Assembly (NCBI GenBank): GCA_030407005.1 | Contig: JAUDYN010000006.1 | Coordinates: forward strand, 3,702,150 to 3,766,149 | DNA length: 64,000 bases | Reading direction: 5' to 3' | From: Desarmillaria ectypa | Taxonomy: Eukaryota > Basidiomycota > Agaricomycetes > Agaricales > Physalacriaceae | Shown: in pieces, positions 61,265-64,000 of the stretch | Position numbering within the stretch: the stretch's first letter is position 1 | How the letters are laid out: each line of letters begins with the position of its first letter | Position numbers and translations under genes: made by a program | Notes under the pieces: model-generated | Seen by the model: the letters and a program-made list of their open reading frames with translations, nothing else | Told to the model about the DNA's origin: nothing | Databases searched by the model: none

Positions 61265-61812
61265 CTAGGCTAGGACGGAACAGGTTCCTCAGAATCCCCG
61301 GAACGCGATGTGGGATCCTCTGGACTTCAGAAGCAATACCCGCCTGGAAGTTCATCAGCATGAAGCAGGATCTTTGGCGTCACGGATGTTTGTAAGCCTT
61401 TTATTTCTTTATCTCCTTACTCATTGAGCCTAATGAAAGTCTCTTCAGACTTCCCATGAGACCCCGCGTCGTGCAAAGGCGACGACATCTTTCTTATTCA
61501 ATTACCGCGACCAAGATTTATCGAGCTCGTGGATACTATGTGGGCTCTCATGATATGCTAATGAAGAGCCTCTGATGACAATGTTCAGACGAGAGTAAAA
61601 TCAGGTGCACTGAGGCATAATATGGTGATTATACACCTCTGTTCGCGATGTGGCTTCGCTTATAGTGCCGTCATAAATTACGCTCCTTCGTGAGCTAACA
61701 GTCTCTGTGACAGAGCATTTCCTTTCATATCCTGCTCCTATCAGTACTGGGAAGGCTCGTGCATTTTTTATTTTTTAATTTTATTATCGGAAGACTTTTC
61801 AACGCTACTCAT

Positions 61813-61935
61813 TAGGGTTGAGTTTTTTTCGGCTCAACCCTACAGCCTTTGACACCAACCCTAGACAATCACCTGGCCTCACCTCACCAACCCTGGACAT
61901 GGATTTTCACCCACTCCACCTTCAACCCTGTAGGG
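61813..61935. repeat. telomere-like CAACCCT motifs and a perfect hairpin
   Basis: TAGGGTTGAG (61813-61822) and CTCAACCCTA (61833-61842) are exact inverted repeats around a 10-nt T-rich loop. Three further CAACCCT(A/G) motifs follow at about 61856, 61889 and 61922, two of them inside a repeated CACCAACCCT(A/G)GACA context. These resemble scattered, mutated telomere units in the C-strand orientation. Confidence 0.6.
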
Positions 61936-62023
61936 TGAGCATGAATGATTGCCTTACCTCTGCTGAGCAACTGTAGAGAGTCTTTCGCCCACTCCTCCCT
62001 CTAGGCTTGTGAGAGAGAGGCTA

Positions 62024-62342
62024 TCTTACTATTTGGCCTACTACAATGGCTCACATGTTTAAATATGGTTAGAATATTCTTCAGCTTGTGAATAACTGCT
62101 CAGACGAAAAGAATCTGCCACTAGTACATTAAGAATACATGGTATGAATACCGCCTGGAATGCGGGCGACGCTATGGGGTAGTCTTATTATTTGGCGCAC
62201 TCCAGTCGCCTCACATGTTTAAATACGGCTCTAATATTCTTCAGCGCGTGAATAATTGCTCAGATAGCAAGGATCCGCCACTAGTACGTTAAGAATGCAT
62301 GGTATGAATACCACCCACAATGAGGGCGATTCTATGCGGCAG
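62024..62342. repeat. two tandem copies of a ~160-bp subtelomeric repeat
   Basis: Unit 1 is 62024-62182 and unit 2 is 62183-62342. Both contain CACATGTTTAAATA (160 bp apart), AATATTCTTCAGC, GTGAATAA, TGCTCAGA, CCGCCACTAGTAC-type blocks (unit 1: TGCCACTAGTAC), TTAAGAAT and CATGGTATGAATACC. Divergence between units is roughly 15-20 percent by eye. They have no coding potential and sit immediately inside the CCACGC-rich block. Confidence 0.8.
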
Positions 62343-62345
62343 GGT

Positions 62346-62417
62346 CACTAGAAATCTAGTGTGGTCACCTGCGTGGTACCACACTTGCGTGTCACGCGAC
62401 CACGCAGGCACGCAAGT
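62346..62417. repeat. palindrome-rich CACGC block, left
   Basis: Three nested or adjacent inverted repeats lie in 72 bp: CACTAGA/TCTAGTG (62346-62352, 62355-62361), CCTGCGTGGT/ACCACGCAGG (62368-62377, 62399-62408) and ACTTGCGTG/CACGCAAGT (62383-62391, 62409-62417). It shares the ACCACGC vocabulary with the block at 62.85 kb. Confidence 0.7.
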
Positions 62418-62450
62418 TCAATCTTTAGTTGAAGTGAATTATTAGTGAAT

Positions 62451-62648
62451 TTACTTTACATGTTTCTTAATGATAATAGAGTATATCCTGCTCATCATTA
62501 ACATGTCCTCCACAATGCACAGGTCGCAATCAAGGTCAGTTCCGATATTTATCAAAAATGATGTTAAATGTTCATTTGCTTCGTGATAGTGAATTAAAAA
62601 CTTTCCAGCTTTCAGTTTATGTTTCCAAGGTATCTTTGTATCGTACAC
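62451..62648 (-). other. AT-rich open frame between CCACGC blocks
   Basis: A 65-codon frame with protein-like composition (WKHKLKAGKFLIHYHEANE, SFLINIGTDLDCDLC) in DNA far more AT-rich than its flanks. It may be a downstream exon of the minus-strand gene that begins at the telomere, or a separate relic. No family is recognised. Confidence 0.3.
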
Positions 62649-62849
62649 TTACATATTTATAATTAAGAGAAGGTAATACTGTCAAAGATGGCTAATTTTC
62701 CCTTTTTATCGCTCAAAGGTCTTTAACTAACACTAGTATACTGCTATAGACATAATCCTGACATAAAATCCTCACGAACCGCCTGAAAACCGAAGGAACT
62801 ATTCAGTTTAAACATATGAGCAATACACTTTCTTATGTAGATATAAACC

Positions 62850-62998
62850 TTGGACCACGCAAGTGACCACGCTGGCGTACCACGCCACCACGCCACCACG
62901 CCACCACGCCACCATGCAGGCGTACCACGCAGGCTTACCACGCATGACCACGCTGACCAACCACGCCACCACGCATGCACCATGCAGGCGTGCGTATC
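62850..62998. repeat. CCACGC minisatellite, right block
   Basis: CACGCCAC is iterated with interspersed GCGTACCACGC and ACCACGCATGACC. About 15 copies of ACCACGC or near variants occur within 150 bp. Composition is abruptly GC-rich within AT-rich surroundings. It has no coding meaning; the open frames across it are simple-sequence artefacts. Confidence 0.8.
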
Positions 62999-63247
62999 AA
63001 TGGTTTGTGAGAGTACTCGTTATTATACTCCTCTGATAGTTATAATATTATCTCCCACATTAATTATGGAAAATTTTGTAATCAAGAAATAGTTCGAAAA
63101 TATTGACTCTAGACTTCGAACAATTTGGATAGTATAAGTGCAAGGCAGCCGTATTTCGACTATGAAGATACTTGAAATTAAATGATATATCTAAAGAAGA
63201 GTCTGATAAATTGGAGTCAAGTTCTAATATAATGGTAAAACTGAGTT

Positions 63248-63783
63248 TTAGGTTCGCCGACACCGTTTGTTAAGGATTGGTTGCATAGCTTCAAACATGG
63301 TGTGGTCAATATCAAGTTCAAAATCGCCATCCAGCCATCGATTCAACGTCTCATGCAGGTTTTCACTCTTCATCAGATCAAGTGCCGTATTTTTCCCGTC
63401 GTATATTAGCTTCGAATTATTGGTGGTAGTGGATACATCCTTACTGCGGAACTGAAGATATGACCGTTCTCCTTTTTCCTTTGTTTTCGCAGAACTGTCT
63501 AGTCCAGGCTGCATGGGAGCAGGCTTCAGTTCCAACGGGGTTGACGGAGCTTTGACTTCGTGTTTGAGAATTTTGGTTTCTTTGGAATTCTGCGATGAAG
63601 TGTCGACTTGTTTCACTGGTTTTGGTACGTAACATTGCACATTTTCTAGAAAATGCGTACACCCCTGTCAGTCATGCCATGTATCGTGAAGCAATGAGTT
63701 ACGATGGATACTTACCACTTGCATCGAACACTGGAACATGTGTTAAGATAAAATTGAAGGGGAGAATTCTTCCAGGAATTGAA
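63248..63783 (-). CDS. hypothetical gene truncated at its 5' end by the telomere
   Basis: Reading away from the chromosome end. An exon runs from the telomere junction to 63716, a 70-nt GT-AG intron covers 63715-63646, and the next exon runs from 63645 to a stop at 63248. Across the join the frame gives VPVFDASENVQCYVPKPVKQ. The exon continues with a Lys/Ser/Pro-rich segment and ends with ETLNRWLDGDFELDIDHTM. On the 5' side the frame stays open into the CCCTAA array (as Pro-Asn repeats) with no start codon before it, so the true N-terminus is missing. An alternative donor at KR/gtgtcg near 63266 could link to further exons at 63170-63060. The family is not recognised. A subtelomeric helicase gene is conceivable by position only, since no helicase motif is seen. 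Confidence 0.45.
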
Positions 63784-64000
63784 GGGTTAGGGTTAGGGTT
63801 AGGGTTAGGGTTAGGGTTAGGGTTAGGGTTAGGGTTAGGGTTAGGGTTAGGGTTAGGGTTAGGGTTAGGGTTAGGGTTAGGGTTAGGGTTAGGGTTAGGG
63901 TTAGGGTTAGGGTTAGGGTTAGGGTTAGGGTTAGGGTTAGGGTTAGGGTAGGGTTAGGGTTAGGGTTAGGGTTAGGGTTAGGGTTAGGGTTTTAGGGTTA
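63784..64000 (+). repeat. telomere, (TTAGGG)n
   Basis: About 36 units of TTAGGG read toward the right edge, the orientation of the G-rich 3' strand at a right chromosome end. One unit is shortened to TAGGG near 63949, and one near the edge is expanded (GGGTTTTAGGG, about 63988). The array starts directly after GAATTGAAGGG with no transition zone. Confidence 0.97.

What the first reader, a model, noticed from the sequence alone, without database searches (positions are those of the whole stretch)
63248..64000. A spliced gene whose reading frame runs into the telomere
Seen: a minus-strand frame with a clean GT-AG intron (63646-63715) is open up to the first telomere unit and has no start codon. 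The transition to TTAGGG is abrupt. Inference: the chromosome broke inside a gene and was healed by telomere addition, or this end was copied from a gene that is complete elsewhere. The retained splice frame suggests that the event is fairly recent.
Basis: partly seen in the sequence, partly recalled or inferred. Interest (0 to 1): 0.75.

Follow-up and report, generated by a model that had tools for sequence, protein, structure and literature searches.

The report
Chromosome end healed inside a transposon
This fungal chromosome ends in the middle of a defective jumping gene, where a new telomere was probably added at a short telomere-like word, and the last 960 bases before it are almost a copy of the same jumping gene on another chromosome; it looks like a natural example of known ways of repairing a broken chromosome end.

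Summary
A spliced minus-strand frame (exons 63783-63716 and 63645-63248, 70-nt GT-AG intron) runs without a start codon into a TTAGGG array at the 3' end of contig C29. The "gene" is not a host gene. [quoted passage not shown] The full element is about 6.7 kb. The genome is taken to be Desarmillaria ectypa from contig lengths. The inner TIR lies at 62343. The outer end is missing, but the closest copy (C12:16.4-18.5 kb) continues in frame through the breakpoint, so truncation is supported. The joint carries a 5-nt telomere seed, AGGGT, as expected of telomerase healing.

Against C12, 62347-62823 differs at 60 of 458 aligned positions and 62824-63783 at only 4 of 952 (0 of 10,000 permutations as extreme). 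The two explanations offered, break-and-heal and copied-from-elsewhere, therefore probably both apply; their order is not settled. The phenomenon is known in kind.

The parts
61780..62342 (.). Subtelomeric repeats, including two tandem 160-bp units (62024-62182 and 62183-62342)
   Evidence: 61780-61993 is 97.7% identical to the last 214 bp before the telomere of contig C30; the two units are 80.6% alike. The related C30 unit and the neighbouring unit both continue past the transposon's insertion point (by eye).
62334..62342 (+). Candidate 9-bp target-site duplication ATGCGGCAG; its partner would be lost
   Evidence: Position relative to the inner element end; 7 of 13 other copies with both ends in view have exact 9-bp duplications
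62343..63783 (-). Non-autonomous DNA transposon copy, cut off by the telomere: inner terminal inverted repeat kept (GGTCACTAGAAAT), outer end missing
62343..62823 (.). Part of the copy with ordinary divergence from C12 (60 mismatches in 458 aligned positions, counted from 62347)
62824..63783 (.). Recombinant tract: 4 mismatches in 952 aligned positions against C12, plus an 8-bp gap; every other pair compared over 63000-63783 is 82.9-94.0% identical
63286..63286 (.). Internal-deletion junction of the non-autonomous subfamily: homology to the long copies (C1, C31) stops here
63248..63645 (-). Exon, ending in a stop supplied by the element's 3' part
63646..63715 (-). Conserved 70-nt GT-AG intron
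   Evidence: protein models P0002 and P0003
63716..63783 (-). Upstream exon, truncated at its 5' side by the telomere
   Evidence: the frame continues in C12
63783..63787 (+). AGGGT, shared by the transposon and the telomere repeat: likely telomerase seed
63784..64000 (+). Telomere, TTAGGG repeats, 217 bases, a few irregular units

Best explanation
A non-autonomous transposon with 9-bp target-site duplications sat in the subtelomeric repeats of this chromosome arm, its gene pointing inward. The arm broke inside the transposon, everything distal was lost, and telomerase built a new telomere on an exposed AGGGT (shown: missing distal part, seed, telomere; inferred: break and telomerase). At some point the distal 960 bp of the copy exchanged sequence with the C12 copy by homologous recombination (shown: sharp identity switch; inferred: mechanism and direction). 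An attractive form is one event: the broken end invaded the C12 copy and copied about 960 bp, moving inward on C12 and so unable to reach a nearby telomere; synthesis stopped and telomerase capped the end. An ectopic gene conversion separate from the break-and-heal step, before it or even after it, fits the sequence about as well. The confidence given is for truncation and healing inside the transposon plus a recombinant tract, not for either order.
For: The C12 copy is complete (both ends, TSD AGATGAAAT on both sides) and continues past the breakpoint. The window copy keeps only one terminal repeat. Only 13 of 2075 positions in the C12 element end in a telomere match of 5 nt or more. The switch after 62823 goes from 60/458 to 4/952 mismatches; 0 of 10,000 permutations reach it. 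Apart from window-C12 in the outer region, no pair of the 15 copies compared exceeds 94.3% in either region (pairs with too little overlap are blank). Flanking DNA is not shared with C12 beyond the element, so this is not a duplicated subtelomere. Blast fungus has direct precedents: 19 of 24 new telomeres at truncated ends used 1-4 nt seeds, and truncated telomeric elements were healed (PMC7367193, passages).
Against: No reads and no second strain were available, so the joint rests on the assembly alone. Telomere arrays lie in one orientation only (194 forward, 0 reverse), which hints at an assembly peculiarity. The four tract mismatches all lie in its distal 380 bp, so the tract could be shorter than 960 bp or have two ages. 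In 150-bp windows parts of C12 are also 95-98% identical to the C29, C30 and C1 copies, so conversion among copies seems general and need not be tied to the break. A C12-like donor that is not in the assembly cannot be excluded. The C30 end, possibly also cut back, shows a seed of at most 1 nt (by eye), so the 5-nt seed is not a rule in this genome.
Confidence: 0.8

Rival explanations
1. Two unrelated events: ordinary ectopic gene conversion between the two transposon copies (in either direction), and, separately, a terminal break healed by telomerase.
For: Other copies show short high-identity stretches (C12 against C30 98%, against C29 97%, 150-bp windows), so conversion seems common in this family. 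A second contig end, C30, has its telomere joined to a subtelomeric repeat that continues in the window, with at most 1 nt of shared sequence (by eye), so terminal loss may also occur where no such tract is known.
Against: It needs two events, and the near-identical tract happens to run right up to the telomere.
Confidence: 0.42
2. Aborted break-induced replication: the broken end copied about 960 bp of the C12 copy and was then capped by a new telomere, one event.
For: One-sided tract from 62824 to the very end. The C12 copy lies on the same strand, 16.4 kb from the C12 5' end, with a telomere at the C12 3' end, so copying would run inward for more than 4 Mb before any telomere. In yeast, ectopic break-induced replication is most efficient close to chromosome ends and falls with the length to copy (PMC9249352, passages), and dicentric products are unstable (PMC2712687, passages).
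Against: Order and direction cannot be read from one genome. C12's 5' end has no telomere in the assembly, so the true chromosome layout there is not certain.
Confidence: 0.38
3. Assembly artefact: a chimeric join of a C29 end, a repeat copy and a telomere read.
For: The switch lies in a repeat, where assemblers err. Telomere arrays are found in one orientation only.
Against: The tract differs from C12 by 4 bases and an 8-bp gap, so it is not simply C12 reads. The joint has a 5-nt seed. Tract length resembles the other ends.
Confidence: 0.12
4. The end arose by a 5'-truncated insertion of a retroelement onto the chromosome end (as in HeT-A, MoTeR or Penelope-like elements), not by breakage.
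For: The orientation, with the gene's 5' side cut and facing the telomere, is what such elements show (recalled for HeT-A; MoTeR in PMC7367193, passages).
Against: The family has terminal inverted repeats, 9-bp target-site duplications and a conserved intron, as in cut-and-paste DNA transposons. No telomere repeats lie at the inner border.
Confidence: 0.02

Closest known systems
De novo telomere formation on truncated subterminal DNA and truncated MoTeRs in Magnaporthe oryzae (PMC7367193, passages seen)
   Same: A terminal element is cut, and TTAGGG is added at a short in-frame seed (1-7 nt).
   Different: There the element is a telomere-targeted retrotransposon; here it is a DNA transposon with target-site duplications, and part of it is a recombinant tract.
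[quoted passage not shown]
   Same: Telomere addition and recombination with subtelomeric repeats compete at the same kind of broken end.
   Different: Yeast sites carry a binding sequence for Cdc13; only a 5-nt seed is seen here.
Mutator-like elements (PMC6446971, passages seen)
   Same: 9-bp target-site duplications (8-11 bp typical), terminal inverted repeats; non-autonomous deletion derivatives (recalled for the group).
   Different: GCM-type DNA-binding domain; no Pfam transposase match; terminal repeats short and imperfect.

Membership tests
De novo telomere addition (chromosome healing) | Telomere repeats start abruptly in non-telomeric sequence whose homologue continues | tested here: met
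   Window and C12 agree to 63787, then diverge
De novo telomere addition (chromosome healing) | Short telomere seed at the joint | tested here: met
   AGGGT; matches of 5 nt or more at 13 of 2075 positions of the C12 element
De novo telomere addition (chromosome healing) | Added by telomerase after loss of an ancestral distal arm | not testable with these tools
   Needs an untruncated strain or an experiment
Break-induced replication / gene conversion tract | Sharp switch to near-identity with an ectopic homologue | tested here: met
   60/458 against 4/952, 0 of 10,000 permutations
Break-induced replication / gene conversion tract | Copying proceeds to the donor's chromosome end (full break-induced replication) | tested here: not met
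   The tract ends after about 960 bp inside the C12 element, so at most an aborted form
Mutator-like element | Target-site duplications of 8-11 bp (9 typical) | tested here: met
   Of 13 copies with both ends in view: exact 9 bp in 7 (C12, C30 1.248 Mb, C29 3.595 Mb, long C1, long C31, C5, C32 2.193 Mb); 8 of 9 in 1 (C30 3.513 Mb); 10 bp in 1 (C4 40 kb); none in 4 (C1 77 kb, C32 2.506 Mb, C31 232 kb, C2 1.931 Mb)
Mutator-like element | Terminal inverted repeats | tested here: met
   GGGCACTAGAAATTTTGCGTGG and GGGCAAGAAGAATTCTGCGTGG, imperfect
Mutator-like element | Transposase with a DDE catalytic core of the MULE type | tested here: inconclusive
   No Pfam transposase match for 9 pieces and 8 homologues. 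The fold of that region is low-confidence; ISCth4 transposase 6xgw (a Mutator-like bacterial family, recalled) appears only at E 1.6
GCM-domain protein family | GCM DNA-binding domain | tested here: met
   Met for the wider protein family, not for the window's own piece, which lacks this part. Of 8 homologues scanned, P0018 passes the Pfam cut-off (25.3 against 25), P0006 is below it (19.9), 6 show no GCM match; the predicted fold of homologue P0025 matches GCM structure 1odh, E 7e-5

The most novel reading that the evidence does not exclude
One natural chromosome end records a two-step rescue: a broken end invaded a transposon copy on another chromosome, copied 960 bp toward that chromosome's interior, was released before a dicentric could form, and telomerase sealed it at a five-base seed. 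Subtelomeric DNA transposons would then act as landing pads that recurrently reset chromosome ends in this fungus.
Probability: 0.3. Interest if true: 0.6.

Novelty: new member of a known kind. Interest (0 to 1): 0.36.

Why it matters
The cases of telomere healing and recombination at broken ends that I came across are in engineered yeast or in telomere-targeted retroelements of the blast fungus. Here a mushroom chromosome end, made of an ordinary DNA transposon, seems to keep both the healing joint and a recombinant tract. Resequencing a few strains could show whether the two are one event.

Tried and rejected
Rejected: a broken host gene (it is a repeat). Rejected: copying of a whole subtelomere from C12 (flanks unrelated). 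Rejected: retroelement attachment (terminal repeats, target-site duplications, intron). The Pfam scan of the window peptide and of pieces of the long copies gave only chance-level matches, all below the curated cut-offs. The structure model was poor outside the GCM part (mean pLDDT 53). Of seven literature searches, four concerned this species or this kind of element; their listings (7, 12, 10 and 10 papers shown of 7, 228, 79 and 357) show no title about this element. I saw listings and passages only, no whole paper, and only open-licence papers are held, so this is no proof that it is unpublished. [quoted passage not shown] One script stopped with an error after its useful output (the C31 copy's acceptor TTTCTCG did not match my intron pattern), so its planned count of silent and non-silent changes did not run; I read those from the printed translations and alignment, for C12 only.

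Full report
What is there. The window is the 3' end of contig C29 (3,766,149 bp) of a 40.6-Mb genome in 32 contigs. Two proteins named Desarmillaria ectypa sit on contigs of exactly the lengths of C1 and C31 (4,568,377 and 3,136,319 bp), so the genome is taken to be that species. The frame also runs on through most of the telomere repeats (to 63953), so being open up to the telomere proves nothing by itself. What shows that it was once coding is the conservation of frame and intron in other copies (the C31 copy has lost the acceptor AG) and homologous predicted proteins in D. tabescens and Armillaria solidipes.

It is a transposon. The stretch 63020-63783 has 31 matching pieces in the genome, and the C12 element has 71 (a lower bound). 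Of these I took 56 and merged them into 28 loci; the 15 left out lie beside listed pieces. Copies have fixed ends, GGGCACTAGAAATTTTGCGTGG and an imperfect inverse, and direct duplications of the target. Of 13 copies with both ends in view, 7 have exact 9-bp duplications (C12, C30 at 1.248 Mb, C29 at 3.595 Mb, the long copies on C1 and C31, C5, C32 at 2.193 Mb), 1 has 8 of 9 (C30 at 3.513 Mb), 1 has 10 bp (C4 at 40 kb), and 4 show none (C1 at 77 kb, C32 at 2.506 Mb, C31 at 232 kb, C2). The long copies (C1:4,498,760-4,505,412; C31:5,640-12,394) share both ends and carry 4.6-4.8 kb more in the middle. The window's frame therefore ends in a stop (63248) that belongs to the other side of an internal deletion shared with the C12 and C30 copies.

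The element's protein. The frame in the long C31 copy matches proteins of agaricomycetes (6 proteins at E<=0.001; 27 including itself with P0001 as query at E<=1e-5). Of 8 homologues scanned, one passes the Pfam cut-off for a GCM motif, one falls below it and six show none. The predicted fold of homologue P0025 matches the solved GCM domain 1odh as its only hit at E<=0.001 (E 7e-5). The downstream part is presumably the transposase, but no Pfam model recognises it. The 9-bp duplications suggest the Mutator-like group (8-11 bp, PMC6446971, passages); I leave that open.

Truncation and healing. The window copy keeps its inner end at 62343, beside a candidate duplication ATGCGGCAG. It is inserted at the end of a 160-bp subtelomeric repeat whose relatives in the window and on C30 continue uninterrupted (by eye). 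The outer third of the element and the partner duplication are missing. C12 continues through the break in frame. The joint overlaps by AGGGT. Only 13 of 2075 positions of the C12 element offer a telomere match that long. In the blast fungus, 19 of 24 new telomeres at truncated ends used 1-4 nt seeds, and 17 of 23 truncated telomeric elements had seeds of 1-7 nt (PMC7367193, passages).

The recombinant tract. Aligned to C12, the copy changes character after 62823: 60 mismatches in 458 positions before, 4 in 952 after. None of 10,000 permutations reaches this contrast. In the inner part the window is 87.1% identical to C12 and closest to C30 (3.513 Mb), 93.9%. In the outer part (63000-63783) it is 99.5% identical to C12 and at most 91.4% to any other of the copies compared (15 copies, blank where they do not cover a region). 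Flanks are not shared, so the two are separate insertions and the tract was exchanged between them or came from a common source. Which was donor is not settled. The C12 copy is whole and points the same way, 16.4 kb from the C12 5' end. If the C29 end copied from it, synthesis ran inward, toward a telomere more than 4 Mb away. In yeast, ectopic break-induced replication falls with the length to be copied (PMC9249352, passages), so such copying is unlikely to finish, which makes abortion followed by telomere addition an attractive single event. Separate conversion and breakage are about as likely. Other copies show shorter patches of 95-98% identity, so conversion within the family seems general.

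Wider setting. Of 21 merged loci on seven contigs over 2 Mb with known length, 14 lie within 100 kb of a contig end, against 5.8% expected (p 4e-13). This assumes contig ends are chromosome ends and uses only loci the search scored. At C30 the telomere joins a repeat that runs on in the window (97.7% over 214 bp), so that end too may have been cut back. Ends of C2 and C32 share 596 bp at 97% and the same joint.

Judgement. The finding stands and its core inference is right, but the gene is a transposon relic and the biology is of a known kind. Its value is as a natural case with a testable order of events. No RNA, no reads and no second strain could be examined here.

Noticed in passing
whole genome G000: TTAGGG arrays occur only in forward orientation (194 forward, 0 reverse matches). 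The eight seen are at contig 3' ends (C2, C5, C6, C12, C29, C30, C31, C32). The six contig starts read (C1, C12, C29, C30, C31, C32) and the C1 3' end carry none. Possibly an assembly peculiarity.
   Followed up: partly
61780-61993; L060 1294-1507: The C30 telomere joins, at CGCCCAC|TTAGGG, a subtelomeric repeat that continues in the window as CGCCCACTCCTCCC: a second end that may have been cut back and healed.
   Followed up: partly
L053 and L061 (ends of C2 and C32): The last 596 bp before the telomere are 97% identical and share the same telomere joint.
   Followed up: no
63783; L011, L017, L018, L022, L025: At almost the same point where the telomere starts, at least five other copies carry an extra stretch of about 220 bp flanked by the direct repeat AATTGATG or a close variant, perhaps a small transposon insertion. 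The coincidence with the break point is unexplained.
   Followed up: partly
G000:C1:4498760-4505412 and C31:5640-12394: Long copies of the transposon, with stops in the coding part of the C1 copy, and exact 9-bp target-site duplications (CAGATTTCG and CTTTCGCCA).
   Followed up: partly
L055 220-1213 (C5 end): A further copy with a 9-bp duplication (TTATCGTTG) lies about 0.3 kb from the C5 telomere; pieces also lie 1.4 kb from the C12 3' contig end.
   Followed up: no
62856-63000: ACCACGC-type minisatellite inside the transposon (limits by eye), variable in length between copies.
   Followed up: no
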